Positions 9,101 through 56,300 of a stretch of 64,000 bases of DNA are shown one piece after another (the first letter of the stretch is position 1; the number at the start of each line of letters is the position of its first letter). The position numbers and the translations under genes were made by a program. Under the pieces are notes generated by a model. The model was not told where the DNA came from and made no database searches. It saw only the letters and a program-made list of their open reading frames with translations. Source of the stretch: Psococerastis gibbosa (lineage: Eukaryota > Arthropoda > Insecta > Psocodea > Psocidae); contig OZ020486.1 in assembly GCA_963971405.1 (NCBI GenBank), positions 33,999,419-34,063,418 of the forward strand, given 5' to 3'.

Positions 9101-12100
9101 TCATGTTTTTCTTACTGACGTACCTGCTGGTTGATTGATTACTGGAAATCCCCGTATGAACATGGATAGGCTACATGTATTTTGTGTCTAGCTTCATGGT
9201 TGGTATAGGCGCGGTTTCCACCGACCTCTAAGTGCAAAATACACATACGGTGAGGTGGTAGCAGATATCATAAATAAAGGCGGGTTTCTACTGACCTCTC
9301 ATTGCAGAATGCAAATGACATTGACGGAAATTTTTGTTTTACTCTATGCCATAGTTAAAATTGACCAATGATCATAGTGTAAAATCACAAACAAACAAAC
9401 TAAATTTAAAAAATGGCGTCATGGGATATGTTAAGTACAACATTTTAATAGATTTCTATGAAAAGAAAACTTCAAATTTCCGTCAATGTCATTTGCATTC
9501 TGCAATGAGAGGTCGGTGGAAACCCCGCCTAAGTCTTGAATGTCTGCTACTACGTCACCGTATGTGTATTTTGCACTTAGAGGTCGGTGAAAACCGCGCC
9601 TTACTATTATGACTGATGAGTACTGATCAACGTGCAATACTGGGTGTTTTAATAAGAAAGTACAGCTATTGGCATGCAAATAATGTAACGATTGAAATTT
9701 CCTTAGAGTACAATATACAACTCAATTTAATGTTAATATAGTTCGTCATCAATAGTCCAATAGAGTATAGGCTAAAAGCGGAAGATCGAGGCTCGGTACA
9801 TGATATTAAAAAAAAAAATCCATCCAGCCCTAATGGGTACCTTACCCTCGCTGGAGTGGAAAACCGATGCTGTCGGCCATGTTGCTGACCTCAGCGTCCC
9901 AAATACAGCAGTCAAGAGAGAGGTTAAGTATTCAGCCCTAGACCATTATTTAGTTGCATTTTTTTACTCACGTAATTATGGCGAACATATAGTGAACTCA
10001 GCAATTTGTATATACTTCTTTGCAATTTGAATAAAGTGGAAAATGTTTACTGTTATAATTTAAATAATATACGGTACTGTATTATCCACAACCGGTTTCG
10101 GAGCACAGTATCATCAAGAAATTGAAAAAATTGCACTAACAATAAGTTTATGGGTGCGTGTTTTAGAGTGTGATATGAAACTATGCCGAAACATGTGTCT
10201 GTGATATATATATTATGTAAATGTAGTATTAAGTAATAATTATGAAATACTATCAAGCACCAAGTCACGATGGAAACTATCAATATTTAATATACAGTAT
10301 GTCTTTGAGTATATAACTTCGGACTTGACATAGTTTCCCTACTTACTCTTTTTTGTTTGGTTAAAGTACTGCAGACGGTTGTGGCTGGCTCACTACGACG
10401 GCAATCAAGTATTGGACACCAAAGATGAACAGAATGTCCGTGACTTTATGGTCGCCAAGTACGAGAAGAAGCGCTACTACCAAGATAGTATGAGAAATGG
10501 AATGACGCCGTCCCCGCAGCCGCCAGCATTACAGCAAAGCAAGCCGCCTCCTCAGACAATGGTTGTGAAGCCTCCACCGCCGCAGGTCAGCCATATTGCT
10601 CAAACAGTACAATAGTAATTTTTTGTAATTTTTGAACAACTTTTTATGTCTGAATGGTGCTTTCGCCTGTTACTTTGCGTCAATGGTGAGCTTGTCTCAG
10701 CTTGTCCATTATCGCTGTAGCCCGTGTAGGATGACATCGAGGACGTATACCAGTTTGGCAATGGCCAAAAATTCATTCGGAAACAAAATAGAATGCGTAA
10801 AGTCCGAAATCCACGGGGTCGTTGACATTGGACAAGGGACCATTGGGCATAAGTGGGCCTAGTTGCTTAAAAAGCACTTCAGGACATTATTATTTATATA
10901 TAGCTGGTGTTTGAAAACTATAGTCGGGGAAAAACTTGCTCTGCATTGTTTTTTTTTCATTAGGCGCGTTTTCCACCGACCTGCAAGTGCAAAATACACA
11001 TACGGTGACGTGGTAGCAGATATCATTAATAAAGGCGGGGTTTCCGCCGACCTCTCATTGCAGAATGCAAATGACGTTGACGGAATTTTTTTTTACTCTA
11101 TGCCATAGTTAAAATTGATCAATGATCATAGAGTAATATCACAAACAAACTAAAATTAAAAAATGGCGTCATGGGATATGTTAATTACAAACATTTTAAT
11201 AGATTTCTATAAAAAGTAAAATTCAAATTTCCGTCAATGTCATTTGCATACTGCAATGTGAGGTCGTCGGAAACCCCACCTAAATCTTGAATGTCTGCTA
11301 CCATGTTACCGTATGTGTATTTTGCACTTGCAGGTCGGTGGAAACCGCGCCTAAAACAATATTACATTATAGGATGTCGTCATAAAAATAAACCCGCATA
11401 GAGTACATACACATACATGCACACATACTATTGCCTAGGAATACGAAGAGTGCTCCATAAATTCCTGTACTGAATAAAATGCACTGTCCATCAAATATAT
11501 TTTTATTGCTTTCTTAAATTGGCTGACACATTGATTTCCACCAAACGTTAACAGCATGGACCATGGACCGTAGGAAACCTGACACTTTATAATTCTTTAT
11601 TAATTTACCAAGCAAGTACAGAATCAAAAAAGTAATAAGTAATGCAACTGTTCAATGAATGCATTGCTTCTAGGCTTTCCAAAATTTGGAGTACTGGTAT
11701 AGATGGTTTTGACCCCTATTTTAAAATCATTGAAGTGCTCTAAATACCAGACGTACGATAACATTCATTGTTTAAAGCTGTAATCCACACAATAGGTATT
11801 AAGACCAGAAGTAGCCTGGATATAATAAACCTGGTTTTGCTTTAAAAGGTCATGTCCATAAATCTGCATTTTATTGCTAAAAATAGACGACATAGTGAGG
11901 ATCGGGAACTTGGCTTGTAAAGTTGTTAATTACTGGGCTAGCCCTCTTCCGCCTATTCCCTAATCCGGTACCAGTGTACCAGTAGTGGTTGGGCCATACG
12001 CCTATCATAGACAGTGCGCTGTGCGTGCTATCACTTTCACTGAGTTTGCATGTCAAATGTGGTCCATTGGTCGCGTTGAGGAGCAGTTGTTGCCAGGCAG

Positions 12101-15100
12101 TGGTCCGGTTAAGTCGAGGCGTTGACACGTTTTCACACTGTACTGCACTGGCACACTTGTAACGACTTGTTTTACACCTTCCGTGTTTTTATTCTAGGCA
12201 AAGACTGCTTTCCCTTATGTGAGTATTATTTATTTTCTGCTTTCGTTGCGTTTAATTTGCTTTTGATTAATTTTAATGATATGATAAATTATAGAAAATG
12301 TCGAGATGACTTCTCATGAGATCTTATTGAAATTAAAGGTTTGAGTCGAAATCTGTAGTGAGGAGAACCTGATTGATATTCTACTTGCTCTTTCCGTTTA
12401 TAAAAACCTTTTATAGGATTTATGTATTATTGTACTGTATTAAATGCATCATTTTAGAAATTTTGCGCCAAATAGGAAATTTTAATATAGCCTATTAGCC
12501 CTACTGGATGAAACGCGCAAAATAAAACATTTTCTCTCCGCCATCTTGTCCTATGCAAGAAAAGATAAAATTGTTCGTAGATCTGAACCCGGACAGATAA
12601 AAAAATCTACATAAATACATTTGTTTCGTTCGGCTTAAGAAACTCTTGAAGGAAATGAAAATTTCGAAAATAAGCTTAGTTTTTGTCTCAGTATCTGTTG
12701 AAAGCGAATTTGAACTTGATGTTGAATGTAATTAATTAGTATAGGTTTTCACACGATCTTGCAGTGGACGCGAGCATTCATTCGGAAGTGTCTCATAATA
12801 ATAATAAAATATGAGACCTCAAATTTTCTATATATGAACGCTGGCCTTTTCTCATGACCTTTACGGGTACGAGATTCTGAAATGGTAAGCTAGTAACCCT
12901 TCCCGTTTACGGGCACGTCGTGCTGATTGTGTCATCACAGCAAAATTTTATATAGGTGTTTTCCCCGAGAACCTCTTTACACGACTTTTATCGATGGCTA
13001 AATCTCTTGCTCGTAAACGCCGTGCTAAGAGTTCCTTATAAATTTAAGGGGGGATTTCAAAATATTATCGCAACAAAGAATAGACCAGTCAATTTGCCGA
13101 AATTAATTCATTTTTCCTTCCGCAGCTATATAAAACTATTTTATGGGTAGCCTGCCTAACATAATTGGAAAAATAGAAAAGCTTTAAAAAAACGAAAAAT
13201 AGCCTAATAAATAAGATGTCAGTACACGTAATCCGAAATCTCTATGACCGTACTATTGGAGTTCGATAATAGGCTGTACTTGGTTAATAACAAGATATTA
13301 CCATAACAATGGCAGTTATTTACAATATCTGTGAAACATTGCATGAGTAAATGTCAATGCAACAAGGGAACAAACATCTTTGTTGCGTTCATTGTTAGTT
13401 ATGCAATAACAATAACAAGGGTGATTTGAAAATAAAATGCTTTTTCAATGTGCTCGCCAAGTTGTTCGAGTTTTGAAGGCTATGACCCTGACGTATTAAT
13501 AAAACACGTTGATTAAACATACCGTAGTTGATTCTAACTGAATCCAAGCCCGATATAAATAGAAATTTATTAAGGGTAGCTGGCCGTTGACAATGGCCAC
13601 CCCTGGACCACCCCAAAATAGTTGGCTTATGTATTATTTCATATTAAATTTGATACTGAAGTTAAAACGATTTGGTCTCATAAAAAATTTTTCATTTTTG
13701 TTAGAATTTTTCCATGAACTTGCTAATTCGGTCAATTGCTGTGTCATGAAAAACCAGTATAGGATCCGGGCTGATGGGCCGTGGTAAGCGTACTTCCAAA
13801 CTTTTCGTCAACATCTGCGATCGACATCTTCAGTGGAACTGCGTAGACTTCTAAGATTGTATCTCGGAGGTTCAGCAGCGACCGTGTCGCAGCAGTCGCT
13901 GCTGAGCCTCCGAGATACAATCTTAGAAGTCTTCGAGTCATTCGACTCCGGCCGTGAAAGCCTTTGCTGTTACAAAATTGCTGTGTCCTATCAGTTCCAC
14001 GGAAACACCAAAACTCAAACATTCCTTGTAGTACTACGTATGAACATATCACAGCTGAACTCGTATCTGTACTTGGTTCGCCTGTTTCAATGGCAAGTTT
14101 GTCTCAGCTTCTCCATTATCTCTTGTAGCCGGTGTAGGTTGACATCGAGGACGTATACCAGTTTGCCAATGGCCAAAAATTCCTACGGAAACACTATGTT
14201 AATAATGTCCGAAATCCATGGGGTCGTTGGCATTGGACAAGGGATCACTAAAAGTAGGTCTAGGTCCATAAAAAAGTCCTTTAGAACTATGTATGAAAAA
14301 GTCGACTTCCATGGCCAGGTGGTAACGTGCTTGCACTTGTGCGAGTCTTTATACGCCATGCGATAGGAGACGTGTCGTCACTAAACACGGGTACTTACCT
14401 ACAGGGGCGACTGAAGAGGTCAATCGGATACATTCATTAAATTGTTTGTATGCGATTAATCTTTTTTTTCTTATAAAAAAACAACTCTGCCTACTGACTA
14501 GACCAAACCTTTAAATAGCTAGGTATTAAATTAAATAAAAAATATAAACCAACCTATTTTGTGGTGATTCAGGGGTGAACAGTCAGCTTCCTTTTGAACT
14601 ATAAGTTGAAATAAGAAAATAAAGAAAATATTTTTTTTTTTTACATACAGTATATAATTTTACCGATCTTCCCTTTCGATTTCGTTTGGCCGTTTGGGTC
14701 AACCAACTCGTCCAGCCATGCATTAACGGTGGAAATGTATTTTTAATTAACTCAATGGGAACGATAATCTAATTAAAGGGAAAGCTAAAGGCGAGTTACA
14801 TACCTGCAACAGATGCACTCCTATAGTACATACGGCGTATGAAACTAAATTATTTATAATGTGTCAATAATTGAGCCGATATATTTAATTCAATAATGAC
14901 TTTTTAATGCTATCTGTTCAACAATTCAGTTTAAATTTCACGCCACTTAAGTTCATCTCTTATATGAAACTGATTTCAAAATATTTTGTAAACAAGAAAT
15001 GGTCGTGTATTTTTGATGAAACTACTTAATTTCTTTCGCAGCCTCAAAGATATGAAAATGGTCAGATGAAGAAAATCATAAGAAATAAAAACTTTCGCAG

Positions 15101-17095: not shown

Positions 17096-17132
<37 letters not shown>

Positions 17133-20100: not shown

Positions 20101-21722
20101 TGAGTTGGAAACTGACCTTCGGGAGTTGGGCGTCCGTAGATGATGGAGCGTTGTAGAAAACCGAGATGACCAGGCCAAAGCTCATCAAGGGCTGTAGAGC
20201 CAGAAAAATAATAATAATAATAATAATGATGCGGGCCTAACGGGGCCGTTATTACTGGATGTACTTTCAGTTTCTCATTGCATCTCCTACCTTAATTTTA
20301 CCGCAGGCTTAAGCCCGGCCAAAGCTTTTTTTAAATAACAATAATAAAGATATAAAGTATTTTCTCGGTGTCTAGCTGTGTCATGTCACGTTCAAACTGA
20401 ATCTAAGGCTGTGGCCATTTTTGCAGCCATCTTCGTGGGCTTCCGCTGCGGTACAGTGTCATCAGACGGAGTTATCTCTGACATTGGATTTCCAGACGAT
20501 TGGCTTCTTGTGACCTCAACACGCTCTGCTCTATCGCGTTGCTTCTCCGTCCTGCTACTTTGGTTCAAATAACTCTCTTGTAATAACAATGTCCGGTTCA
20601 AGGCCGATGTCTCAGTTCTCTGCATGGATTGCGGTTTTCGCAGAACGGCTTACGATGCCTGAGTTAGCCAATTTGAAACAAGCAGTTTTCATTTTATCGT
20701 TTTAATGTACCATATTAAACGTACGGCACTCTAATTGGCATGGCCAGTGTGTTTAGAGGCTAATTTCCACATTGGCCAAGTAATATCTGCACTGGCGGCG
20801 AAATGGGGGCCTCCACCCCCCCCCCCCCCTCCCCGAAAGAGTTACCGCGTCCTAATGGCAAGGTTAGGGATGGAATTCGTCAATTTTTCAATTTTTAGAT
20901 TCATTGCGAGTATTGCAACCGTGTAGCCGTATTGTAGAGGCCTGGATGATAGAACCGGAACGTCTGGGTTCGTGACCTGACATAATACAATAGAAACAAT
21001 CGCGAATTCTGACACTTAACCGTAAAGGTCCTATTCTCAACTGATTTGTTCCAACGAGGAAATCCAAATTGTAATGGGGAATGTGAAATGCTTGTCAGAG
21101 ACGGAAAATAATGAATCGCTGCAATGCATTTTCCTAGACTCATTTTTTTTACTGTATACATATAATAACCTATAATAAAATATACAATTATCCCAGACTA
21201 AAAACAACACATTAACTATCTAAAAAATAAAAAGTCTAGATATTCGCTCTCTAGATAGAGTAGGTCAGTTCGTATGGCAGAAGGTGACACCTCCTGTCAC
21301 AACATCCCAACTGCGTAACATGATGTTTAGCCTGCCCGAGATAGTGCTCTGCGATGTCGCACCCTTGGCCCTGTTATCTTATCTCCTATGTTGTTTCCGC
21401 GTCTTCCTTCCGCCCATTTCGCCCTTGGGTTAAATGACTGCGTTGCTCAGATTGAATGGCCTTTGACAAGTTTTGAATCTTCATCTATATCCCAAAAGAC
21501 CTAACAGACTAACGAACAAAATTTGTTAAGACTCGGAAACCATGTTGAACATTATATTTTACTTAATTAATTGCAGCTTTATTTATGTACACGAAACTAT
21601 TGGAATTAGTAACTGTTAGTTAGGAACTAGTAAACTGAGTTTGGAGTCCGTTGATCCAAAAAACGAGTAACGTTGGTATCCAGCGGCAGGGGGGGGGGGG
21701 TCCGATTGGGGCTTACGACCTA

Positions 21723-21763
<41 letters not shown>

Positions 21764-24700
21764 GGTGCCTCCTTAAGGTAAGGTTCGTTGCGTCGACCTT
21801 TGAGATCTATTGCAGCCGCTTTGTCATGGAGATTCATGTCTGGAATATACCCACTTTCTTGATGAAAGAGCGGGTTTTTCCTACTGGATCTTCACGAATC
21901 GTCTTCGTTTCTGACCCTGGTATTCCCAGTATCCTGAAACGGTTTTTAGCCAGAGCTTCACATTCTAAGAGAACGTGCTCTGCTGTTTCATCCTCCATTT
22001 CACACCATCTACATTCTCTACTGCCCGTGTGGACTTTGAGTTTATACAGATGATGCCTTAGGTGGCAGTGCCCTGTGAGCAAACCAACAATATTCCTTAT
22101 TTCTAATCTGCCAAGTAATAGCAAATTTTTGGTAAGTTTTTTTGATGGTTTTATTCCAAGTCTTTTTAGACTTCGTTTTTCTGTCATATTGTGCCAGGAT
22201 TCAATTTTCTTGGTCTGGATCCATCTGTCAACTATAGTGCGTACACTTCCATAGGATATACCACAGGTTGGCTCTGGTCCAACAAATATTGAGTCCGAAC
22301 CTATATTTGCTAATGCATCGGCTCGTTCATTTCCCTCTACTCCAGAGTGTCCCGGCACCCACTCCAACTTAAGTTTATTATTTTTACTTACTCTGAGTAG
22401 GAGCTGTTTACAATCCCGTACTAACTTTGATTTAGTACAGTAAGAATCCAGAGCTTTAATAGCTGCCTGGCTATCAGAAAAAATGTGAATGGTCTTATTC
22501 TCATATTCCATTCTCAGAATTTCCCTTAAGCACTCAGCAATGGCACAGACCTCAGCCTGAAAAACCGTGCAAAATTTTCCCAGGCTTATGCTGATGGACT
22601 TAACTGGGTTCACCCCGTTAATTCCCGCACCCGTACCATTTGCTGTCTTAGAGCCATCAGTAAACCATACCAGTGTGCCAGCCTCCTGGCTCAGCGTACC
22701 CTCCGTCCAGCTTTCTCGAGTTAAGATTCTGGATTCGAAGGGCCTCCTAAAGTCATATTCAGGCAACATCTGATCAGATGGCATACTAATGCCTTCCTCA
22801 GTAATTGAGTTTTTTATAGCACAGTGTCCTCTGAGGGAATTTTCCCAGAGTCCTCCTTGCTCCAATCTGTACGCACTCATTCTGGCCTGCCCCATAATAA
22901 ATAAATTTAATGATGGGAGATCCAGAAGGGTATCTAGGGCGTCAGTGGGAGTGGTAGACATTGCACCTGTTATTCCTATGCAAGCCAACCTCTGCACACT
23001 ATTTAGTGTTAATTTCGCTGTGGTTTGATTTGCCTTCTGCCACCAAACTACAGCAGCATATGAGATTATAGGCCTTATGACAGCCGTATATAGCCAGTAA
23101 GTCATTCTAGGCCTTATCCCCCAAGTTTTCCCAATCGCTCTCCTGCATGCAAACATGCAGTTTTTCGCTTGGATTACTCTAGACTTTAGATGGGCATTCC
23201 AAGTAAGAGTCCGGTCTAAAGTGACCCCCAAATACTTGACTTCCTTCGCCCATTTGAGTTGTTCTCCAAATAGTATTGGAGGTTCCCTATCACTCACCCT
23301 TTGTTGGCGAGTGAATGGGATAATGTGAGTTTTGGCAGGATTAACTCTAAGGGATTCTTCCAGACACCAATTCTCTACTATTTTAATAGCTCTTTGCATT
23401 AGTTCCATCACAGTAGCGATGAATTTACCCACCACCACTATGACAAAGTCATCCGCAAAGGCTTGTGTGTACAGTCCCTCCCCATTCAGAGTTACCAAAA
23501 GTCTATCGGCCACCAGATTCCACAGTAGAGGTGAGAGAACACCCCCCTGAGCGCATCCTTTGGTCGCCAACACTACCTTCTCGGTATCAAACAACGAGGC
23601 CTGTAGTTCTCTACGATAGAGCATATTTTTTATCCATCGACAAGTTGTACCTTTAACTCCAGCTTCCCTAACTGCTCTTATCATTGAGCTATAGGTAGTG
23701 TTGTTGAAGGCACCCTCTATGTCCATGAATGTTGCAAGAGCAATTTCTTTACATTCCAAGGATTCCGCAGAACGGCTTACGATGCCTGAGTTAGCCAATT
23801 TGAAACAAGCAGTTTTCATTTTATCGTTTTAATGTACCATATTAAACGTACGGCACTCTAATTGGCATGGCCAGTGTGTTTAGAGGCTAATTTCCACATT
23901 GGCCAAGTAATATCTGCACTGGCGGCGAAATGGGGGCCTCCACCCCCCCCCCCTCCCCGAAAGAGTTACCGCGTCCTAATGGCAAGTTAGGGATGGAATT
24001 CGTCAATTTTTCAATTTTTAGATTCATTGCGAGTATTGCAACCGTGTAGCCGTATTGTAGAGGCCTGGATGATAGAACCGGAACGTCTGGGTTCGTGACC
24101 TGACATAATACAATAGAAACAATCGCGAATTCTGACACTTAACCGTAAAGGTCCTATTCTCAACTGATTTGTTCCAACGAGGAAATCCAAATTGTAATGG
24201 GGAATGTGAAATGCTTGTCAGAGACGGAAAATAATGAATCGCTGCAATGCATTTTCCTAGACTCATTTTTTTTACTGTATACATATAATAACCTATAATA
24301 AAATATACAATTATCCCAGACTAAAAACAACACATTAACTATCTAAAAAATAAAAAGTCTAGATATTCGCTCTCTAGATAGAGTAGGTCAGTTCGTATGG
24401 CAGAAGGTGACACCTCCTGTCACAACATCCCAACTGCGTAACATGATGTTTAGCCTGCCCGAGATAGTGCTCTGCGATGTCGCACCCTTGGCCCTGTTAT
24501 CTTATCTCCTATGTTGTTTCCGCGTCTTCCTTCCGCCCATTTCGCCCTTGGGTTAAATGACTGCGTTGCTCAGATTGAATGGCCTTTGACAAGTTTTGAA
24601 TCTTCATCTATATCCCAAAAGACCTAACAGACTAACGAACAAAATTTGTTAAGACTCGGAAACCATGTTGAACATTATATTTTACTTAATTAATTGCAGC

Positions 24701-27700
24701 TTTATTTATGTACACGAAACTATTGGAATTAGTAACTGTTAGTTAGGAACTAGTAAACTGAGTTTGGAGTCCGTTGATCCAAAAAACGAGTAACGTTGGT
24801 ATCCAGCGGCAGGGGGGGGGGGGGTCCGATTGGGGCTTACGACCTACCTTACACAAACACATTTACAAGTTTCTAGGCAGACAGTGACGCTGATAAAATG
24901 ATGTTTTTTGATTTTGAAGTGAATGGTTTTTCATCCCTGTAATTCGGACCATTCATTATTTTCTAGAAATAATTTTGATAATAATGCCGGATTATCCAAT
25001 TTTTGCTAAGGTACTCGGGTACTTCCTATATGAATAAAAAAAACAACTTAATGCTTGCCACTACTTCAGCTTACTGTGCTGGGCAACGTCTATATCGAAC
25101 AAACGCAAAATACCCATTTTTGGGCGTATTGAATTAGCCCAAAATATATTTAATTAAATAGTATGATTTATATGCTTTACATATATTGTAATTTTAGAAT
25201 CTTATATGCCGAATTACATCAAAACTCATTGATTAGTTTTAGATTAGCAATCGCTGCACCCTGACGAAGGTAGTATTTGCAAAACCCTATATATATAAAT
25301 ATATATAGATATATTTTGGTGGCACACAGCATGTCTCAAAACTTTGTTTGTTTTCAGCTCCTATCCCAGCTCTACCGAGTTCTGCTTCCTACCCGATGGG
25401 GCTCAAGTCTGCTGGGCGGCAGCCGTCGGAAGATAAGTACGCAGCTCTCAAGGACCTCGACAGTCAGATGAAGCAGCAGCAGGAACAACCCACCAACCAT
25501 AATACTTCATGTGAGTTACCATGTTCAGTCCGAAAATAGAATCAAGAACACTGGACTAGAACCCACAGTCTATACCCGGTAAGGCACTGACAGTGGGTTC
25601 GAGTCTTGATTCTCTATTTTCGGATGTAATTTCCCAAACCGGTTGATTCTTCAACCTGAAGTTAGCCTTATCTGGATTTACCGTTAGAAAATTGTTATTC
25701 GAAGAAGGATGGCATATTTTGGTTTGATTCTTTTCCTCTAAATATTCATTTTATTTGTCAAAAAGAACGTTGGCTTAAAATTAATCAGTAGTTCCAAGTG
25801 GAGTTTGGAGGAAATTAATAAAAATGACTATCCTGTATTCTGACTAAGAGGGTGGTAATGGTAATTATTTATTTTCTCCTGTCACGATGTAGACTACTCT
25901 TTCCCTAGGCATTGTCACAGAATTTTTGATGGATAGTCATTGTCTCTAATAGAGATTCTCACGCGACACAATTTTTCTAATATCATTCTAAATTGCCGCT
26001 CCTTTTTCAGTTGCTGGAGGCATCAGCGATTGGGCGAACATTGAGCAGACGCCTGCGCCTTCAGCGAATCCGTTCGCCCCGTCGTTTGTTCAACCTGCAT
26101 TCTCACAAGCTCAGAATGGTTTCACTCCTAGCCCTTCTAACCCCTTTGCGAACGGGTTCGACACTGGAAATTCAGGATCAACCTGGCCTCCTATGCCTAC
26201 AAGCCATTCTATGCCTTTCCCTGTCAGCTGGGGACCTCCAAATAATTTAACTGTAAGTACCTTTTCCGTAATTAATGGATGTCTGTCCTCCATAAAGAGT
26301 CCATGGCTGTAAACCGGCAATCCTGTCGTAAACATCTTGCCTTTTGAGTCCGCGGCATATCGTGTGCCTTCAAGTGGCGAGTTGCAGTTGAAGACACACG
26401 GACGACTGCCTTGTTCATATAAACTGCAGCCTTGCTCGCTTCACTTCTCTACTTCAGTTAGGGGTACCAAAAAGCGACAAAGTATATATCTAAAATAACA
26501 TTATGCACCTCTGTAATATGATAATTTCCCGAAATATTTACAATAACTGGCCTACTATGCCGTTTAGTATTAACCTATTCCTGGGGTTAAATGTAATCAA
26601 AAAAATTTTGAATAGCACTTTAAACCATATAATACTCTAGACACGCCATGTTCTAGAATTTCCGAGGGACCAACATACTGTAAAATGACGCCACACACTA
26701 GCAAAAGCAGCTGCTTTTAGTGGCGCGAACCTATAATTTTCAAGTTTTGTTTGTTTGGTTAGTTAATTGGAGTGAGAGAATATTTTTTAACTTTGGTAAA
26801 ACTTATTTAAGGCTGAGTGTTCAAAATGTTTTGTAAACAAGAAATTATCGTACTTTTTGGACGAAATTAATTAATTGCTCGTTCCACAGCCACAAAGATA
26901 TAAAAGGGAGCAGATGAAAAAATCTTAAAAAATACGAGCTTTCTGTGAAAGCTGTCTATTTCCCTTACAGATTTATAACTGTGCCACAAAATGGGTTTAA
27001 GGCTCTTTATCCAATTTTTTTAAAGTAATAATATTTCAGTTCAGAAAATATATACTTCCTGCGATAACTTGGATTTTTTATGAGTTTTTTATCTGTTCAC
27101 TTTGTTATCTTTGTATCTGTGGAATGAGCAATAAATTATTTTCTTCAAAAAATCAGTAAAATTTCTTGTTTACAAAACATTTTGAACACTCAGCCTTAAT
27201 ATTCAATTAGAAACTTATAACGATCAGTCCGTTATTTTTTTAACAACAAAAAAACTAGTTACCTAGCAACAAAGTCTCTGTTGCTGTTGCTAGGTAATCT
27301 GGGCTGTGACGTCACCCTCTGGCAAAAGCCTCAACTTTCTCATGCAGTGCATCCAGAATGCCGTGTCTTATATGGTCGAGTACTATATGGTATAAGAATA
27401 GCACTTTTCATTGTAAAATTATCTTGTTTACTTTTTTAATTCCAGGTTAAGATTAAAAATAATTACCGTACCATAGTATAAATCTTTCTTTGTTCATATT
27501 GCGGCTACTCCAAATACGCATTTGCTCTCATGTGGTACTACTGCAATGTTATCTCTTTAATTATATTTCGCTTCAGCCGAACCTAACGGAACAGGCAGGT
27601 GATGTGAGGTAGAGGGGATTTTCTGATGCTACTACTATTTTCAGTTCCAGAAATTCATTTTCTTTTATCTAGTTTCAGTAGGCCTTTTAAACATGAACAT

Positions 27701-35788: not shown

Positions 35789-38700
35789 TTAGGTGGACGA
35801 AGTTGAAGGCTCCCCCTCGCCTTCAACTAAATACACCCTGGCTGTTTGATCGTCGGAAGTTGTCATTAGGACTGCCCCTCTACAGCTGTTCCTAAAGCAA
35901 AAATCAGTAAATTAATATAAGAATTTACGTAGAAACTTCATTTAACTATTATTAGGCTTCACTCGAAGAAACCAATAAACCGGCCACTAGCCAATACTGT
36001 TAATGTTAAATTATGTACCTAACTACCCCATTAACCATTTAAAGGCAGAGCAAAGCCATGCCTTTCTTTATCCAATAACTTTGTACTTTACATAATGTCG
36101 TCCATGACCTACCTACTGGAAAACTGGCCTATTAAAAATTTAACGCAATTCTCTTCTTGCACACTAATATGATCAACATGTTGTTGTTATGAAGGTAATA
36201 ACTTACATGTTAAAATCCAGACTAAGACACTGGCGTGTGTGCCCCATAAATTCCCTTAAAACCGACCCGCTACGGGCATCAAACATAGCTGCGACGCCAT
36301 TGGTGTGGCATGTAAAGACTATAAGTTTAGTAGGGTGCCAAAGTAAGCCCGTGATACCTCCTTCAAATTTCTTCTGGTGACGAAGGCTTTGGCGGGTTGT
36401 ATCCCAAATGCGGAGAGCCCCACGCCCGTGCCCTGTTGCCGCAAGGATCTGCGGCCCACCGATTTTGGAGTAAGCAACAGCTTCCACACACTCTGAATCC
36501 CCTGCCGTATCGGGCATTGCCACACACTGAAACATGGCAACAAGATAGAAAAAACAAGAGGTATAAGGATGCTCGGTACAAAAATAGATATGATCAGGTA
36601 TGCACACGACATTGCTATGTTGGCAGAGAACGAAGCAGAAGCTCTAAATGCCATGGAAAATGTACATCAACCATACAACATGAAGATTAACAAGTCAAAA
36701 CCCAAAGTCATGGTAGTAAGTACTAATGCGAACGAGAGCACAAATATACATCTAACTGGGACTCCCATTAGCAACATCAGATCTTTCACATACCTAGGAA
36801 GTAAAATTATCTCCGATGGCAGGTTGAACTAAGAGATAGAGTATAGAGTGCACCAAGCAAAAGTGACTTTCAACAAAAAATCTAAATTTTATGAGTCGAA
36901 CAATATAAGTTGGACTAAGGAAACAAATGATAAGTCCCCGATTTGGAGCATTGAACTGTACGGATGTGAAATATGGTGTATAAGTGAGAAAGAACTTAAA
37001 TAACGCGAAGCATTTGAGATGTGGGGCTATCGTCGCATGCTACGAATGCCTTGGCAAACCCAGGTTACAAATGAGGAGGTTCTAACTAGAGTAATCGAAA
37101 GAAAAACTCTGGTTGCATCGATAAGCAAGCGAAAAGCTCACTGGGTTGAACATTTGCTTTGAAACGAGAACTTCGTAAGCTGCATCATAGAGGGAACAAT
37201 TGAAGGCGTCAACCGACCTGGGCGCCCGAGAAAAGAGTATCTGCTACAAGTAATGGTGGATGAAGGGGCCAATACATACGTGGAACCGAAGAGGGCATGC
37301 CAGGATCGAGGGGAGTGGAGGCACCGATGCCACATGTTGCTGCCAACCAGCCAGCCGGCTGTAACTTGAAGAGAGAGAGAGAAAGAACGCATTTCACACA
37401 AGCGCAGGTGCAGCTGCTTCGGCCAGTGTGCGACGTCATTTTATGTTGGTCCCTCGGAAATTTCAACATGGCGTGTCTAGATTATTATATGGTCTAAGTT
37501 GTGGACAGGTGAAGCTAAACACGCTTCCCAGTCCTATAAGTGGAGTGTTTATGGAATGAGAGGTGTTATCAGCTCACCTTGCCAGTGTCCGGATTTGCGA
37601 TAAAAACAAGCCCGTTAATACATCCGCATAAAATAGCATTAACATCCTTGTGTGTATCCAACTTAGTGACCTCCTCAAGCTCATGGAAAGGTTTAACAGT
37701 TTTGATGACGGTGCATGTTTTCAAATCGAATACCTGCATTGTCAAACATGCTGAAAACACGACGAATCTCTTCCCTGAAACAATTGTCCAATAATTAGTG
37801 AATACAAAGTTCGTTTAATGTATAGTATGACAGTATGCCAACGGCCTTACCAAGTTGAATCCACGAGAGCAGAGCGGGTTTCCAACTGCGGCAAACTTGG
37901 TAGTGTGCACAGCGTTGGTAATGATAACGCGCTGAGACTATACCAGTCAGTCTACGTGTGTGGCGAGTCTTGGTCACCTCCGAATTAATCGTGTGACTTT
38001 ACTCTGTTCCCCACATGGTTCGGAATCCACTGTAATTGGGAGGGCCACCCTGTCAGTCAACTCCCCTTCTCCCCGAGGTGCAGGAGTCTACCCTTAGGAT
38101 GCCTCAAGTTAATAAACAGACTCACTCCTCCAGCCAGGCTGACAGGGTTGCTTAAAGCAGAATTGCTGAAAGCGGGCGTTAAAAAAAAATGACAGTCCCC
38201 TGTACTTGCCAAGAGCTCGGTACCTTGACAATGCAAAGGCAGTGGTGAAGTATTAAAGCATAGGGATGTTATTTTACCTTCAACTTACCTATTTAACAAA
38301 GGGTTAGCTGCCTGTTGCCTCAGTCATCGAGAAAAAAGGGGCGACATTTCGGGAGTGGGTGCTACTGATATCATCAGGCTTAGTTCCGAGGACTGATCGT
38401 TTCTAGACGATTGATACATTGCTCTTGTATTCTTCTCTGAGTAATTCCGATCCCCTTGAGGATTCAAACTACCGTTCTCCCGATAGAAAAGTAAGCTTTC
38501 TAACGAAACATTAACCTGCCATTAACCTTAACCATTATAAAACTCACCGTCAGGTAGAAAACATCCACTCCAATGTCTATTGGTATTAGACATGCTAATG
38601 TACTTTTCTTCGAATTTTGGCACAGAGTACATCACAACATTTTGCCACGTGCCAATGACGAAGATATTGGCAACGGGATGCCACTCCAACCACTGAAACA

Positions 38701-42723: not shown

Positions 42724-42754
<31 letters not shown>

Positions 42755-43342
42755 TAAATCGCATACAAACAATTTAATGAATGTATCCGATTGACCATTT
42801 CAGTCGCCTCTGTAGGTTATTACCCGTGATGAGTACGACACGTCTCCGATTGCATGACGTGTAAAGACTCGCACAAGTGCAAGCACGTTACCACCTGGCC
42901 ATCGAAGTAACTTTATGTATTATCGAGAAAGGGTTTCTAATCATTGACCTGCCCAAACCACATTGCGATGGGTACAAACAATAGACTCAAACGTTTCACG
43001 AAGCGAATAATTTACGATACTGCCACGAGAAATTTAAGTACGCCAATGAAGTGCTTAACTATTTTCTAGGCAGACAGCTACAACAGGCATAGGTCTTGGC
43101 TTACCTCCATGCTTATCAAAACGTACAACTGCATCGTCGCGGTCAGGAGTAAATGGTCCATCTTCGAGATCAGTATCGCCTTCCTCATTTTCATCTTCTA
43201 CAACACTTTCGGCGTCCATTGCCCACTCTGCACCCTCCTCTAAGTAGATAACCTCTGCCATTTCATCTTCATTCAAAGATGCCAAATCGTCACCTGCATC
43301 GGGTGATCTAGGGGGTGTATTGTCTGACTTATCAAATGGCAT
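35789..43342 (-). CDS. AAMP: AAMP/Sqt1-type WD40 protein (7 exons)
   Basis: Orthologue of angio-associated migratory cell protein, the metazoan relative of yeast Sqt1, a chaperone for ribosomal protein uL16. Minus-strand exons in order: 43105-43342, 40736-40866, 39241-39375, 38548-38692, 37578-37774, 36207-36526, 35789-35891. All junctions are GT-AG and phases close exactly; 422 aa against about 434 in human. Residues 1-75 are acidic (EDENEEGDTDLEDG). WD40 blades follow: HPTKGNIAVTGSMDNSVFVW, VKFSKDGKYLVTVDLDS, WLEWHPVANIFVIGTW, FLPDGKRFVVFSACLTMQVFD, ATGHGRGALRIWDTTRQSL, FDARSGSVLREFMGHT and the end AVLMTTSDDQTARVYLVEG. WLEWHP, LPDGKR and TLRHQ-like matches identify AAMP. Introns hold LINE, SINE, hAT and MITE copies. 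Start chosen at the only ATG of the exon-1 frame before the acidic region. Confidence 0.92.
36548..37373 (+). pseudogene. LINE ORF2 C-terminal fragment, antisense in an AAMP intron
   Basis: The + strand reads TKIDMIRYAHDIAMLAENE: the RT motif with YAHD in place of YADD. Then come FTYLGSKIISDG, AKVTFNKKSKFY, ELYGCEIWCISEKE, REAFEMWGYRRMLRMPW, NEEVLTRV, GVNRPGRPRKEYLLQVM and WRHRCHMLLPTSQPA, the order of an arthropod non-LTR C-terminus. Several stops interrupt it. The insertion starts about 20 bp from the AAMP acceptor at 36527, so it forms most of that intron's 3' context. Confidence 0.8.
37837..38190 (+). repeat. SINE with 5S-rRNA-like head (copy 2)
   Basis: GCCAACGGCCTTACCAAGTT start, GGCAAACTTGGTAGTGTGCA and CAGCGTTGG end of head, then GATAACGCGCTGAGACTA, CTGGTTCGG-type B-box-like segment, CCTGTCAGTCAACTCCCCTT and an A-run tail. 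Inserted in an AAMP intron in antisense orientation. Confidence 0.7.
38807..39125. mobile_element. Non-autonomous hAT-type MITE
   Basis: A 16-bp perfect TIR, CAGTGCCGGATTAACC and its inverse GGTTAATCCGGCACTG, with 8-bp flanks GTAACATG and GTAATATG (one mismatch). 319 bp, no coding frame. In an AAMP intron. Confidence 0.85.
39450..39550 (+). repeat. Dispersed repeat shared with a LAMP-gene intron
   Basis: TTTAGTAATACTT, ACAAAGTTATTTTATTT, AAGTATTACAA and GTGGAAAAT...ACTGAAATA recur at about 62025-62110. Contains an internal AAGTATTAC/GTAATACTT inverted pair. Class unknown. Confidence 0.5.
39950..40150. repeat. Palindromic MITE, AAACGTTTGG family
   Basis: Outer arms GAAGCAGTAGAATTCAGGCT and GATAGGCCGT pair with ACGGCCTATCAGCCCGGATT and CCACTGCTTC. 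Inside are CTTCCAAACGTTTCGTCATC and ATCTGCGGCCGACATCTTCA. Same family as 13755 and 52745. Confidence 0.75.
40160..40510 (+). pseudogene. Decayed LINE 3' fragment
   Basis: The + strand shows, across frames, ANEEML, EGRTLIAFIRERRAMRG and GRRKRKTPSK, resembling the TNEEVLxRV, LxxTIRxRR and GRPRxRY run near the C-terminus of non-LTR ORF2. Heavily interrupted. In an AAMP intron. Confidence 0.45.
41760..42641 (-). pseudogene. LINE ORF C-terminal fragment split by a hAT-type element
   Basis: Minus strand: VLSRLGDTHAYGTRGRDDL, VIPMHRASWYEGKPAYAG, AKIIRKVEEMTAFRIKLK. The frame resumes on the other side of the element at 41891-42448 with KRHLIDQCLYVDDMMWNY. Tract order (TRGRDDL..., P.AG..., LP..IR, FK.KLK..L) is that of the C-terminus of CR1/Jockey-like LINEs. 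A related domain is at 45045-45310. Confidence 0.65.
41891..42448. mobile_element. Non-autonomous hAT-type element inside a LINE fragment
   Basis: Ends AGGGTGGCGAGATTTTC and GTCTGGCCACCCTA are inverted repeats. The flanks TCTTTAGT (41883-41890 and 42449-42456) are an exact 8-bp duplication. About 558 bp; AT-rich with GAGTATA repeats and no coding frame. Confidence 0.75.
42728..42912 (-). repeat. tRNA-like SINE, family A (inverted)
   Basis: On the minus strand: ACTTCGATGGCCAGGTGGTA, CACTTGTGCGAGTC, GGAGACGTGTCGTACTC, GGATACATTCATTAAATTG, then an A run (about 28 T on the + strand). Confidence 0.7.
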
Positions 43343-44009: not shown

Positions 44010-47000
44010 ATGGTTGTTCAATATAACGAAAAAAAGGATCATGTCGATAACGCACTACTCTCTGCTCAAGAGATCTCTTTTGCCAAAGTTTTGGCTGGAA
44101 ATGAAAAGAAAAAACGCGATCAAGGTTTGAAGAAACTTGTCAAATGGCTTAAGTACCGCAGTGATGGAAATTTAGGTAAGAATCGAATACTATTATAGCT
44201 ATTTGTTTAAACATTACTATATTAAGTTATTAAATCTTTATTTTATGAGGGAGATTGGCCAGACTTGTCCTATTTAAAGATATACATAAGTAGGAGCCAA
44301 ACAATATAATACTTTAAACTGAAGTTGTCCGAGTAGTAGTAGTAGTAGTTGTGATTTGAAGTAGTGCATCGCACTAATGTTTAATCGCGACACTACTGCT
44401 CTACGTCCTCACCTTTTTTACATCCTAGACTAGACTTTCTGAAGGAAGAGAAGAACTAAATGTTCTTTTAAAGCAATTAAGTGCTACAAGTTATCAGTAT
44501 CAGTTATATTCATGCCATTTTCAAGCTTGCTAGGGCGGGTATTCCACACACGTACATCGTCAATGAAAATTATGAAATTGAAGGATATTTCAATTTTACT
44601 CTATGCCATTGTTAAAATTGATCAATGATCAATTGATGATAGAGTAAAATCACAAACAAATAAATAAAAAATTGAAAGATGGCGTCATGGGATATGACAA
44701 GTAGAACTATTTTAATTGATTTCTTTAAAAAGAACGCATTTCTGTATAAAAATTATAATAAGGTTTAAATAATAAGGCGACGAAGAAGACAAATACAATT
44801 TCAAGAAACAAATGCAAACAAATTTCAAAAATTTGGCGCATACGTTTCAATAGAAAATTGTCTATTTTTGAAAAAAAAACATGTGGAATGGCCGCCATCA
44901 ATGAAAAATTGAAATGTCCTTCAATTTCATAATTTTCATTGACGATGTACGTATGTGGAATACCCGCCTTTGGCTAGCTTCTGGGCGTCGTCATCAATTT
45001 CTGTCGTCTAAAACAAAATAATAGTAAATAAATAAAGAACACAATTACCGTATTATCGGGTTCGTCAAAAATTCCCTAACCGAGTAGGGAACTTGTTCCA
45101 ACGGTAGCCGACGGACGGCCCCTGAAAAAACCTTTACCTCATCCAGTGTCCTAATCTCCCGGGGTAGTTTGTCAAACAACCGGGATCCCCAGCTCCCTAG
45201 GAGACCTAAGGCTAGCCGTAAGACGACTGCTCTCCCGGAGGAAGCAGTCCCTATTTCTGGTCCCATAGGTATGGGTATCACCTGATCTGGGGGGCGGGTT
45301 TTTCCGCAAATGCACTGATGTCTCCACGATACGAGGATGGTCCCAAAATTAGCCGACCTAACTATGAAAAACAAAAAATTGGGGGGAAATTTGGCTTTAT
45401 TTCTCTACATAATCTCCTTTCAGGTTCACACACTTCTCCCATCGATGTTCAATAGCTTCGATGCCCTGTTTATAGTGAGATCCGTCAAGTTCCTCAAAAT
45501 AGCCACTAACCGCACACTCAACCTCGTCATTGCTGACAAATTTTTTACCACCCAGCCATTTCTTCAAGTTTGGAAATAAAAAATAGTCCGAAGGGGCTAA
45601 ATCTGGCGAATAGGGTGCGTGGGAAAGCAATTCAAACTTTAGTTCATGAATTTTGGCCATCGCGATTGCGGATGTGTGAACTGGTGCATTGTCTTGGTCA
45701 TACAACACTTTCTTTTTCGCCAAGTGCGGCCGTTTGCTCTTTATTTCGTTCGCCAACCGCTGCAACAAGTTCGCGTAATATTCCCCATTGATTGTTCTAC
45801 CCTTCTGAAGATAATCAATGAAAATTATTCCACGTGCATCCCAAAATACGGATGCCATAACCTTGCCTGCCGAAGGAACAATCTTAGCCTTCTTTGGCGC
45901 CGATTCACCCCGTTCAGTCCATTGCTTAGACTGCTCCTTTGTCTCCGGTGTAAAATGATGGACCCACGTCTCATCCATCGTTATGAATCGACGCAAAAAC
46001 TCGGCTTTATTGTGCCGATACTTCACCAAACAGTCGCTTGAAACATCCTGTCGGCGCTGTTTTTGCTCCATTGTGAGTAATCGCGGCACCTATCTGGCGC
46101 ATAACTTCCTCATGTCCAAATTTTCCATCAATATGCGATGCACTGCACTTTTTGAAATGTTTACTATGTCTGCTATCTCGCGCACTTTTAATCGCCTGTC
46201 ATCAAGTACTATTTTGTGGATTTTCGCCACCATTTCTGGCGTGGTGACCTCATTTGGTCGACCACTGCGATGTTCGTCTTGGCAGCTCTTGCGACCCCGC
46301 TTAAACTCAGCCACCCAGTATTTTACTGTTGTTAATGAAGGAGCAGACTCCCCCAGAGTAGAATCTAGCTCCGCTTTGATTTTCGTTGGACCAATTCCTT
46401 TCAAATGAAAATATTGTATCACATAAGGATGACCGATTTCGTCCATGTTGTCAAATTCTCTAACAGAGTTCACTTCCAACGGCTGCCACGAAAGTAATAA
46501 ACAAGATGGCGTCACCAAACTGCGCAATTAAACTTAGTAAGGTTGGCACTTCCTGCAACAGTCACTAATTTCTAGCAGCAACTGCCATCTATGAGTCAGG
46601 CCGGGTACTACTGGGACCACACCACCCTCGTATATAGAGCTGGTAGAGTTAGTATACCAAATTCTCACCTGATCACCTGATCTGGGGGGCGGGTTTTTCC
46701 GCAAATGCACTAATGTCTCCAAGATATGTAGAGCTGGTAGAGTTAGTATACCAAATTCTCTAAATAAGGGCCGGCAAGATACTCTTTGATACCCGCAATG
46801 GTTCTAATAGCCCTCTTTTGCAAGCGAAAAACCCGGAGGGAGTCAGTAGAGTTACCCCAACAGATAATACCATATCGGATGTGACTTTCAAAAAGACCAA
46901 AGTACACAAGCCTTAGCGATCGATTATCCATAAAAAATGAAATATTTCTAAGTAGGAAGTTTGTGGATCCAAGCTTATGGCATAATGTGTTAATTTGGTT

Positions 47001-48976
47001 TTTCCAATTAAGGTCCTTGTCCAGCTCGACCCCTAAAAATCCAACCGAATCGCTCTCAGTAAGGGGAACATCATCCACCCTTAATAATGGGCTCCTTTCA
47101 ACAGGCTTTCTACCAGCAAACAATGTAAAGGAGGTCTTTCCTAGGTTGAGAACAAGTTTGTTAGAAAAAAGCCAGTTCCTTGCGACAAGGAGTACTTCCT
47201 TCCCAAGGTCCTCAGCTCCAAAAACATCAAGCACTTTCAGAAGTATGTAGTTGTCATCAGCGAAGAGACCAACAATGGGTTTACCTCTAGACAATTCCAA
47301 ATTTCTCGGGTAGTCTGAGGAATGCTCGTATTTATGTTCCTCCAGTTAGACCGAACACCAATATCTACAGCTTGCTTCCGATCCACGAGGTATGATCTGA
47401 CCCAGTCTAAAGGCAATCCAAAGTATTTCAGGGCTCATTACAGAATCAGAAACATAAGTTTTTGACAACATTCTTAACAAGAATGAAATGTAACTGTGGG
47501 GATACTTTTGAACGTGCTATAAAAATTGAACTTATTACTACTGAATGTTAAAACTAAATAACACGTCAGTGAGAAAGACTGGAGGAGAATTTGGCGTCAA
47601 GATACGAGTGACTGAATAGCGGGGTCATAGAATAAACATTTATATTTAGCGGGGTTGCAGCGGAAAAGTAAGCTACTAAATACTATAGTACAATATAGTA
47701 CAACCCTTGGCTACTCAATACAGAGAACGGCTGTTTTTAAGCCTCCCAAATGGGTCTGGAGGGCGGTAGGGCTCTATTCATGATGGAAAACCTCAGAGCA
47801 ATGTTAGAAGCAAGTTAACTTCGGCGCATATTCCACCGACCGGCTAGGGCTAAATACAAATACGGTGACGTGGTAACAGACATTCAAGACTTAGGCGGGG
47901 TTTCCATCGACCTCGCATTGCAGAATGCAAATGTCATTGACAGAAATGTTTTAATTTAACGCTTTAATTTTTGCCGCTTTCTCTTTTAGAGTTTACAGAA
48001 GATGATTTTAAGACTATATGGACGGGTCTTTATTATTCAATGTGGATGTCGGACAAACCTCTTGTTCAGGTAGGGCAAAAAATGTTTTCCTCATTTTGAT
48101 TGAATGGCTTCCTTAAGGTCGCCAATGCATCACTACTGCGTGGAGCCAGACTATTTTAAAAGACTGTAAACTTAGACTTAAGAATTACAAGTCTCAATGA
48201 GTAGTGGTACGGACTTCGACTTTCACCCGTTTGTTGGTTCGAATCCCTGCACTTGCTACATTTTCTGGCCATACTTCGGAGGGAATGTAAAACCTGGACC
48301 TTCCTAGTTGCGTGTAAGAGGGGGCTCCCCTAGGTTGACTAATAAAACTAGAAATCATTATCCATTTATTCACGTTTAAGATGAACTAAATTAAACATTC
48401 TATTATTTTGATCAGGAGTTCCCAAACCTTTTGATCGGTGGACCACTAGATTATTTTATGATTTTCCGTGGACCCCCATGGCTGTTATAGGAAAATCGTT
48501 AACTTTAAATTACGTGCTAATATTTCATTAAATGTGTAGAACTGGTATCGGGTGGATTTTGTAGTTCAAAGCCAAGACTTACTGTAGTTTATTTCAAACT
48601 TCCAATACCTGTTTCATTTTTTTATTTCTTACTGTGGCCCGTGGACTACAGGTTGGGAATCCCTGATTTTTATTATTCAGGTTGAAAGTTTAGAATTAAC
48701 TTTCTTTGTCATATTTTTGTTTCAGGAAGAGTTAGCAGAAAATTTGAGCCATCTGATACATTGTTTTGTTAGCAATGAAAAGGCTGCTTTACTCTTCATT
48801 AAATGTTTCTATTTGACAATGGCGCAATCTTGGGCCGGCCTTGATCAGTTCAGAATGGACAAATTTTGTATGGTTTGTATCATATCATAACTAATTAGCT
48901 TTTTGGATTATTTTTCTCTCAGCCCGTATGATGGGAACGCCGTAAAAACTGTTAACTGTAGATCTAAGGTAAAATG

Positions 48977-49007
<31 letters not shown>

Positions 49008-53353: not shown

Positions 53354-53393
<40 letters not shown>

Positions 53394-56300
53394 ATTACAT
53401 ATGTTTACAAAACAAGTTACACACTCTTAAAGCTTAATCCTTTCTTTATTTTTCGACATAGTCACTGTTTTGTTCCAAGCACTTTTGAAGTCGCCCTAAG
53501 ACCTTCATTATCCCTTTGTCGTACCGTTCTCCGCCTCACGGAGAAATTTGTTCACTGCTACCGTGACTTCCTAGTCGCTTGGATGCCGCCACTGTTTGGA
53601 CTGTTATTTTGTCTCGGGGGTGAAATAGTGGATCCATGTCTCGTCTCCAGTCACAACAGAGTCAATAAATTCTTCCCCCTTCTCTTCGTATTGGCGCAGA
53701 AATTCAAGAGACGAATCAACACGTTTTCGTTTGTGCATCCGAGCACAGACCTTACGGCATCCCAAAATTCCTGTTAAAAACTTATCAACAGTAGTTTTTG
53801 AAACATCTGGAACCAATTCACAAAGTTCCCTAACCGTCAAACGCCGATCTGCGCGCAAATGAGCTTCCACGCGTGCAACGGTTTCGTCAGAAATGGATGG
53901 GCATCCCCTACCTGGCTCGTCGTGGACGTTTGCTCGGGCCGCTGTAAATTCCCTACCCAACTTCCTGACGTTTTTGACGTTCTTAACATTTGGGTCATAT
54001 GCCAAGTTATGTTGCCGATGAATTTCAATGGGTGAAGTTCCTATGAAGTGCAAAAAACGAATAACTGATCGAACTTCGCACCTGGCGGGAGAGGAGATCG
54101 TCAGATCCATCGCGGATGGCTGCTGAGCCCAGACCGAGCATCGTAGCGAGGTCGAGTGAGTGGGGATCAAAGAGGAGGAAACAACAGTGTTGTAGAATTT
54201 TACCTAGTGCTGCGCGTTCGAAAACGGCAACGTTGGAGACCTTATTTTACGGACACCCTTCGTATATAGGGTGATTCACACCACCCTATGTTTCGGTTAC
54301 AATGACGAATTTTGAGATGGGGGAAATTTTCGTAAACCTGACATGCCAGGAATTATCGGATTTTAAAACTTCGTAAAAATATGGCATGTTGCACTCAAAT
54401 GAATGAATGTAATTCAAGCGTTTTCATTATTATATTTTAACAAAGTTGAAAAATCCGATGAAACACGTGTACCTTAAATGTCTGGGTTACGAAAATTGTT
54501 TAATAGGTCCAGCACAATTCATAATTTCATTAAAATACATCCAAAAACAAGGAACAGCTTTAATTAAGGCATTTGTGCTGATTTTACCTGTGCCTTATGG
54601 TTTAGGTTCTGAAAAGGCATACCAAATGAATGGTGTCAGAGCTTCCATTTGATGAGTAACTTGAAATAAGTTTGCATTTGAAAATTTGAAGATACCATAT
54701 ATCACCCCCCCCCCCCCAAAAAAAACCAATTCCGATTCAAATTAATACGACCAAATGATTCGTTCGACTCCAACTTCATCACATTTTTCACCTCTCCTAA
54801 ACATTTCTCATTGTAACCAAAATATAGGGAATGGAGGGGTGGTGTGAATTAACCTGTGCATATTTTTCTACATTTTACTCAAAAACATCTTTATCAATTC
54901 ACGTGGTTGCTTGACGTTGGCTATATTCGTAATCCTACTTTCAGGCCGGCTTTCCTGGTGGTAACATAAATGTAGTCGTTCGTGACGATTCAGATAGTGA
55001 AGATGACGAAGCTAATCATACGAATCAAAGCGCGGAAGCGTTAAAGGAGAAAGTAAATAATGAGGACGCGTTAGATGAGGACGAAAAAGAAGAGGAAGAG
55101 ATGAGAAACAGTGAGATGAAGCCGCTGGACCCTCGAGCTGGTAGTGTCCACGTGGAATTGCCTCAGATACCGGTGGCCCCAGCCAGTATTATCAAGGTGC
55201 TTCAGCGCTATGAGGGAATTCCGGAATCTACCTTGAAGGGAAGACGCACTATAAAGGTTCTCATTAGGAGGTAAGTTGCCAACGGTCATACCATGTTGAA
55301 TCAACCAGAACAGAGCCTGTTCCAAGCTACGGCAAACTTGGTTGTGTGCACAGCGTTGGCTGGAGATCATGGTGAGACATGATAACGCGCTGAGACTACC
55401 AGTCAGTCTACGTGTGTGGCGAGTCCTGGTCACCTCCGAATTAATCGTGTGACTACTATGTTCCCCACATGGTTCGGAATCCACTGAAATTAGGAGGTTC
55501 AGCCTGTCAGTCAACTCCCCTTCTCCCCGAGGTGAAGGAGTCTGCCCTTAGGGTACCTCTAGTTAAACAGACTCACTCCCCCTGCCAGGCTGACAGGGGT
55601 GCTGAAAGCAGGCGTTGGAAAACAAATCACACAGGAGGTAAGTTTGTATCCTAATTAGACACTATCATAAACCAAATAAAACTGTACGTTTCTTGTGTAT
55701 CTTTAAACAAAACAAAAAAATGTAAGTGCTTAGTTCCAGGTCATGGAGCATGAGTACGAGTCTCTATTAACCTAGTAGCTAACCGGGGAATAAGAGAAAT
55801 GAATACATTTTATAGGCAAACCAGGCCCATAATCGAATCCCGCTCCATTAAAGTTATCTTACCTTTCTCAAATCTCTGTAACTTCTATGCTGTTATAAAA
55901 TTGTTAAATAATATTGAATTGTTCGATGTCCGATGATAATATTTTTCAGAATCCAGTTACATTTTAATATTCAAAGCATTTATTGGATATTTAACCAGAT
56001 TTTCAAGTTTCACAAAGTGACTTTCCTTACCTATTATGACTAATATTAGGACTTGTGGAAATACATGAGTGACAGTGCAATCGATAAAATGTATATTTTT
56101 AAATCTTACCACTTTTAATATTCTTCTTTCAGGTTTAGAACTTTGAGAAGGGGAAAGTGTCCCTTGGGCATAAAGACAGTTCCAAAAGCTGAAAAGTTTG
56201 GGTCCAAGAGGTATATCAATAAATGCGCTATGAAGCTGATAAAAGAATCCCTTGTAACCAAACAAGTAAAGCGGAGGAATCGAGATAAAATTAAACGTAC

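What the first reader, a model, noticed from the sequence alone, without database searches (positions are those of the whole stretch)
20639..24850. LINE insertion flanked by 1.09-kb direct repeats: a giant target-site duplication?
Seen: the same approximately 1085-bp sequence occurs directly on both sides of a minus-strand, poly(A)-tailed, 5'-truncated LINE, and differs only in homopolymer lengths and one G. The LINE fills the gap exactly, with its 5' end at one junction and its A tail at the other. Known: target-primed reverse transcription normally gives duplications of roughly 5-20 bp, rarely a few hundred. Inference: either the two nicks were more than 1 kb apart, or a tandem duplication and insertion happened together, or the assembly merged two haplotypes. 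The open LINE frame and near identity imply a very recent event.
Basis: partly seen in the sequence, partly recalled or inferred. Interest (0 to 1): 0.82.

Follow-up and report, generated by a model that had tools for sequence, protein, structure and literature searches.

The report
LINE insertion with kilobase target-site duplication
A young, broken jumping gene sits between two nearly identical 1.09-kb copies of its landing site, most likely because its insertion copied an unusually long stretch of target DNA, a rare outcome already seen in cell-culture experiments.

Summary
Two copies of a 1.09-kb sequence (20639-21726, 23766-24850) flank, with no spare base, a minus-strand 5'-truncated LINE (21727-23765). 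They show 0 substitutions in 1,084 aligned bases and three length differences, all in homopolymers. The LINE has an open frame (partial RT, RNase H) and a 35-37-base A tail. The repeat has no third copy in the window. The LINE has no short duplication of its own at the inner junctions, which argues against insertion into an older tandem duplication. Best reading: target-primed reverse transcription with the second strand cut about 1.09 kb from the first nick. Such outcomes are in print: 1,228 bp in 1 of 25 wild-type DT40 insertions, and over 1 kb in NER-deficient human cells. An assembly artefact is not excluded: no genome or reads were held. One oddity: a 9-bp direct repeat lies 8 bp inside each end of the unit (P 0.0026, post hoc).

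The parts
20639..21726 (.). left copy of the 1.09-kb direct repeat (target-site duplication, 3' side of the LINE)
   Evidence: alignment; BLASTN
21725..21761 (-). T37 on the + strand = poly(A) tail of the minus-strand LINE; first two T shared with the repeat
21762..21833 (-). 3' untranslated region of the LINE (72 bp)
21834..23765 (-). 5'-truncated LINE ORF: partial reverse transcriptase, RNase H, weak zinc-binding match at the C-terminus; no internal stop
23766..24850 (.). right copy of the 1.09-kb direct repeat (5' side of the LINE)
24847..24854 (+). inferred first-strand nick CCTT/ACAC; the primer's T end can pair with the poly(A) tail
   Evidence: sequence; that a nick fell here is inference
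20647..20655 (+). GGCTTACGA, 8 bp inside the left end of the repeat (also 21710-21718, 23774-23782, 24834-24842)

Best explanation
A LINE RNA was inserted by target-primed reverse transcription with a very long target-site duplication. Inferred steps: (1) an endonuclease nicked the + strand at CCTACCTT/ACAC (24850/24851). (2) The T-ending primer annealed to the poly(A) tail and about 2 kb of cDNA was made, stopping inside the RT gene (5' truncation). (3) The other strand was cut, or already broken, about 1.09 kb away, at the position before 20639. (4) The cDNA end was joined there, and fill-in of the separated strands gave two copies of the 1.09-kb segment. Shown: the anatomy (exact fill, A tail, truncation, near-identical repeats, no second duplication). 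Inferred: the nick positions, the order of events and the host repair step.
For: The insert fills the gap exactly, with its tail at one edge and its truncated 5' end at the other. One event explains both copies and both junctions. The primer's T end fits the A tail. Open RT/RNase H frame. No third copy of the repeat in the window. Published insertions show the same result: a 1,228-bp duplication in 1 of 25 wild-type DT40 ZfL2-2 insertions; in human L1, 2 bp to 1.6 kb (median 14 bp) in NER-complemented cells and a median of 1,495 bp in NER-deficient cells, with cleavage sites such as TCTT/a. Kojima, citing the HeLa data of Gilbert et al., says that 5'-truncated L1 were the ones often coupled with extremely long duplications (passage); this copy is 5'-truncated.
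Against: No reads, empty allele or second individual could be examined. Long duplications are rare in normal cells: in HeLa those over 100 bp never exceeded 10% of events, typical sizes in DT40 were 15 bp for L1 and 5 bp for ZfL2-1, and Drosophila R1 insertions outside 28S had 2-14 bp. No second copy in the window and no relative elsewhere was found, so the element's exact 5' end and any microhomology there are unresolved. The 9-bp repeat 8 bp inside both ends is not predicted. The 18 other long T or A runs in the window gave no usable duplication to compare.
Confidence: 0.72

Rival explanations
1. Assembly artefact: two alleles (with and without the LINE), or two error-bearing versions of one sequence, were joined, so one of the inner junctions is false.
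For: All three differences between copies lie in homopolymers, a pattern typical of long-read error (recalled; for the differences). False heterotype and homotype duplications are documented (PMC9516828, passages). Contigs often end inside LINEs (recalled).
Against: No N in the window; the paper lists gaps between duplicated pairs as one mark of false duplications. Divergent haplotypes should carry substitutions, and there are 0 in 1,084 bp; this does not speak against a homotype error. A false join would have to fall at one end of the repeat with only a few shared bases, while the other junction is a normal A-tail junction. Coverage, the main test, could not be done.
Confidence: 0.16
2. Two-step origin: the 1.09-kb segment was first duplicated in tandem and the LINE later landed, or was used as a patch, at the duplication junction.
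For: In cancer a single L1 event lies at the junction of a 22.6-Mb tandem duplication (passage).
Against: An ordinary later insertion should carry its own short duplication; no 4-12 bp suffix of the left copy recurs in 23701-23800, and no 4-9 bp start of the right copy occurs in 21691-21740. It must also hit one position in about 1.09 kb. If break and capture were one event it is hardly separable from the favoured model.
Confidence: 0.08
3. R is itself mobile or an LTR-like terminal repeat, so R-LINE-R is one composite element.
For: 9-bp direct repeat near both ends of R and C/G-run inverted repeats inside it.
Against: R starts CGCAG and ends CCTT, not TG...CA (LTR rule recalled); no further copy in the window; the longest inverted match between the two 26-bp ends is 3 bp; the interior is a truncated LINE with a poly(A) tail. 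The rest of the genome could not be searched.
Confidence: 0.04

Closest known systems
ZfL2-2 insertion with a 1,228-bp long target-site duplication in wild-type DT40 cells (PMC2666801, passages seen)
   Same: a LINE flanked by a duplication above 1 kb in repair-proficient cells; 1 of 25 insertions
   Different: engineered zebrafish LINE in cultured chicken cells; here a genomic copy of another LINE, host unidentified
Human L1 insertions with kilobase duplications, mostly in NER-deficient cells (PMC5223499, passages seen)
   Same: same size class, mostly with poly(A) tails, cleavage sites of TCTT/a type
   Different: cultured human cells with NER defects; not all the long duplications in its tables are marked as verified; host repair status here is unknown
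L1-mediated tandem duplication in human cancer (PMC7058536, passages seen)
   Same: one L1 lies at the junction of a duplicated segment
   Different: 22.6 Mb, proposed to bridge sister chromatids; somatic
Drosophila R1/R2 insertions (PMC2718515, passages seen)
   Same: non-LTR elements with variable 5' junctions and microhomologies
   Different: duplications of 14 bp typical in 28S and 2-14 bp elsewhere

Membership tests
non-LTR retrotransposon (LINE) | reverse transcriptase of its own | tested here: met
   RVT_1 E 2.4e-23, profile positions 65-205 of 205
non-LTR retrotransposon (LINE) | poly(A) or simple-repeat 3' tail | tested here: met
   T37 at 21725-21761, at the 3' end of the minus-strand element
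non-LTR retrotransposon (LINE) | endonuclease and, in most clades, ORF1 in the full-length element | not testable with these tools
   this copy is 5'-truncated within the RT and no full-length relative was found
I / Jockey / R1-type LINE group | RNase H downstream of RT, and placement by a tree | tested here: inconclusive
   RNase_H E 1.5e-16 downstream of RT; no relatives found for a tree; the group name is recalled
LINE insertion with long target-site duplication | direct repeats immediately flanking the element; one copy in the empty allele | tested here: inconclusive
   direct repeats met; empty allele could not be examined
LTR retrotransposon | terminal repeats with TG...CA ends around an interior with integrase | tested here: not met
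   ends CGCAG...CCTT; no integrase family among the ORF's four Pfam matches at E 0.01; the rule is recalled
Penelope-like element | GIY-YIG endonuclease after the RT (recalled) | tested here: not met
   no such family among the ORF's four Pfam matches at E 0.01

The most novel reading that the evidence does not exclude
The insertion used an ordinary-size (25-bp) target whose two halves were held side by side although 1.06 kb of DNA lay between them. The 9-mer GGCTTACGA lies exactly 8 bp inside each end of R, so leaving out the 1,063-bp block gives CGCAGAACGGCTTACGACCTACCTT, a normal-length LINE target. If the block is a mobile unit with a 9-bp duplication whose ends were synapsed, or was looped out through its C14/G12 runs, the LINE machinery would have cut across the base of the loop and copied the loop into both flanks.
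Probability: 0.04. Interest if true: 0.7.

Novelty: new member of a known kind. Interest (0 to 1): 0.33.

Why it matters
If real, it is a natural genomic case of a LINE duplicating a kilobase of its target. It would show that the second-strand cut can lie far from the first outside cultured cells and tumours, and that LINEs can create small segmental duplications. Servant et al. suggest that such long duplications may recombine and eliminate the insertion, so such loci may be under-counted (inference).

Tried and rejected
Local controls: 18 other T or A runs of 10 or more bases, among them the long T-runs at 17098, 42724, 48977 and 53357, were tested for exact flanking repeats of 8-60 bp within 7 kb; none longer than 10 bp was found, so they give no size distribution. 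Relatives of the LINE protein: genome contigs gave 3 pattern matches, none confirmed; viral contigs none; these collections hold prokaryotes and viruses and the search reaches close relatives only, so this says little. Exact 24- and 22-base patterns from R: none in genome contigs and viral contigs respectively. PDB: 120 distinct sequences at E up to 0.01, of which 60 were shown; these are RNase H matches, HIV-type among those I could name, except 8c8j_A (RNA-directed DNA polymerase) over the RT part; not informative for the clade. R as LTR, Penelope or TIR element: see rivals and membership test. Rfam at gathering scores: one tRNA only. Paper searches with no useful listing: 0 papers; 3 papers, not opened.

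Full report
Observation. The window holds two direct copies of a 1.09-kb sequence, 20639-21726 and 23766-24850, which align over 1,084 bases with no substitution and three length differences, all in homopolymers: C14/C11, GG/G and G12/G13. Neither has a third copy in the 64 kb at E up to 1e-4. Between them lies 21727-23765, with no base left over. The organism was not identified; that it is a eukaryote is inferred from the LINE and other transposon remnants.

The insert. On the minus strand it reads as the 3' part of a non-LTR retrotransposon: 643 codons from the 5' junction to one terminal stop at 21834-21836, 72 bp of 3' UTR and an A tail of 35-37. Pfam finds RVT_1 from profile position 65 of 205 (so the RT is cut in its N-terminal part) and RNase_H; zf-RVT and RVT_3 stay below their cut-offs. 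The 5' part of a LINE is missing, so this copy should not be able to move on its own (inference). I would place it in the I/Jockey/R1 group from recall; no relative was found to test this, in collections of prokaryotes and viruses where none was to be expected.

Junctions. On the + strand the repeat ends CCTACCTT, followed by T-run and LINE in the left copy and by ACACAAAC in the right copy. This fits a nick CCTT/ACAC whose T-ending primer pairs with the A tail (inference). At the other side the left flank reads GGTTTT|CGCAGAACGG and the LINE reads GGATTC|CGCAGAACGG; a few bases of microhomology may be shared, but without a longer relative the true 5' end cannot be fixed.

One event or two? 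A LINE landing later at the joint of a tandem R-R would be expected to carry its own short duplication. No 4-12 bp suffix of the left copy recurs in the 100 bases around the LINE's 5' end, and no 4-9 bp start of the right copy occurs in the 50 bases around the start of the T-run. It would also have to hit the exact joint. A single insertion with a 1.09-kb duplication explains these features together.

Age. Zero substitutions in 1,084 bp gives a 95% upper bound near 0.28% divergence between copies. Together with the open frame this means young, but without a mutation rate not dated; gene conversion between copies would also keep them alike.

Precedent. In wild-type DT40 cells 24 of 25 ZfL2-2 insertions had target alterations of 20 bp or less and one had a 1,228-bp duplication (PMC2666801, passages). 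In human cells (PMC5223499, passages) 4 of 7 inserts in XPA-, 21 of 23 in XPC- and 22 of 28 in XPD-deficient cells had duplications over 100 bp, and 18 of these (38%) were over 1 kb; in the complemented line 3 of 9 were over 100 bp, and its table shows two of 1,520 and 1,612 bp. Not every long duplication in those tables is marked as verified by sequence or PCR. Kojima, citing Gilbert et al., says that extremely long duplications in HeLa cells went with 5'-truncated L1, that these had been considered a peculiarity of HeLa cells, and that his own genome study collected only 5-30 bp (PMC2912911, passages), a reason why natural cases may be missed. In cancer a single L1 marks a 22.6-Mb tandem duplication (PMC7058536, passages). 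On the other side: HeLa events over 100 bp never exceeded 10%; L1 gave 15-bp and ZfL2-1 5-bp duplications in DT40 (PMC4245944, passages); R1 insertions outside 28S in Drosophila had 2-14 bp (3-14 in the text, 2-14 in the legend; PMC2718515, passages). In the listings I saw no title on a kilobase duplication at a natural non-human LINE copy; most of the listed papers were not opened and the library is open-access only.

Artefact. No genome or reads were held. Differences confined to homopolymers resemble read error. False duplications are described as having half or very low coverage and gaps between pairs (PMC9516828, passages). There is no N here; coverage is untested.

An oddity. The 9-mer GGCTTACGA lies exactly 8 bp inside both ends of each copy of R and nowhere else in the window. 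Among 200,000 random 1,088-bp window segments, 0.26% share a 9-mer or longer between their 26-bp ends. The test was chosen after seeing the repeat, so it is only suggestive. Without the 1,063-bp block the duplication would be 25 bp, an ordinary size. R also carries C14 and G12 runs about 860 bp apart that are mutually complementary. I found no clear terminal inverted repeats (3-bp longest match in the 26-bp ends, 7 bp in the 60-bp inner ends).

Verdict. It is probably a natural instance of a known rare outcome and needs read-level confirmation.

Noticed in passing
window 20647-20655, 21710-21718, 23774-23782, 24834-24842: 9-bp direct repeat GGCTTACGA exactly 8 bp inside each end of the 1.09-kb unit; P 0.0026 in random segments, post hoc.
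   Followed up: partly
window 20816-20829 and 21689-21700: Long C and G runs inside the repeat form a complementary pair about 860 bp apart.
   Followed up: no
window 17098-17130, 42724-42749, 48977-49003, 53357-53389: Further T-runs of 26-33 bases that may be tails of minus-strand retroposons; no exact flanking duplication above 10 bp found.
   Followed up: partly
window 45397-46089 (-) and 53604-54203 (-): Transposase remnants: one with Transposase_1 and DDE_3 matches (mariner-like, recalled), one with an HTH_32 match below its cut-off.
   Followed up: no
window 46743-47345 (-): Open frame of 200 aa that looks like a piece of another reverse transcriptase by eye (recalled motif); no Pfam match at E 0.01.
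   Followed up: no
window 9206-9601 and 10961-11352; 37836-38160 and 55277-55611; 14305-14464 and 42750-42908 (inverted): Dispersed repeat families at 84-91% identity.
   Followed up: no
window 62209-62775: Threonine/proline-rich tandem repeat (TTEPPK) in an open frame, possibly a mucin- or LAMP-like exon (recalled; no Pfam match at E 0.01).
   Followed up: no
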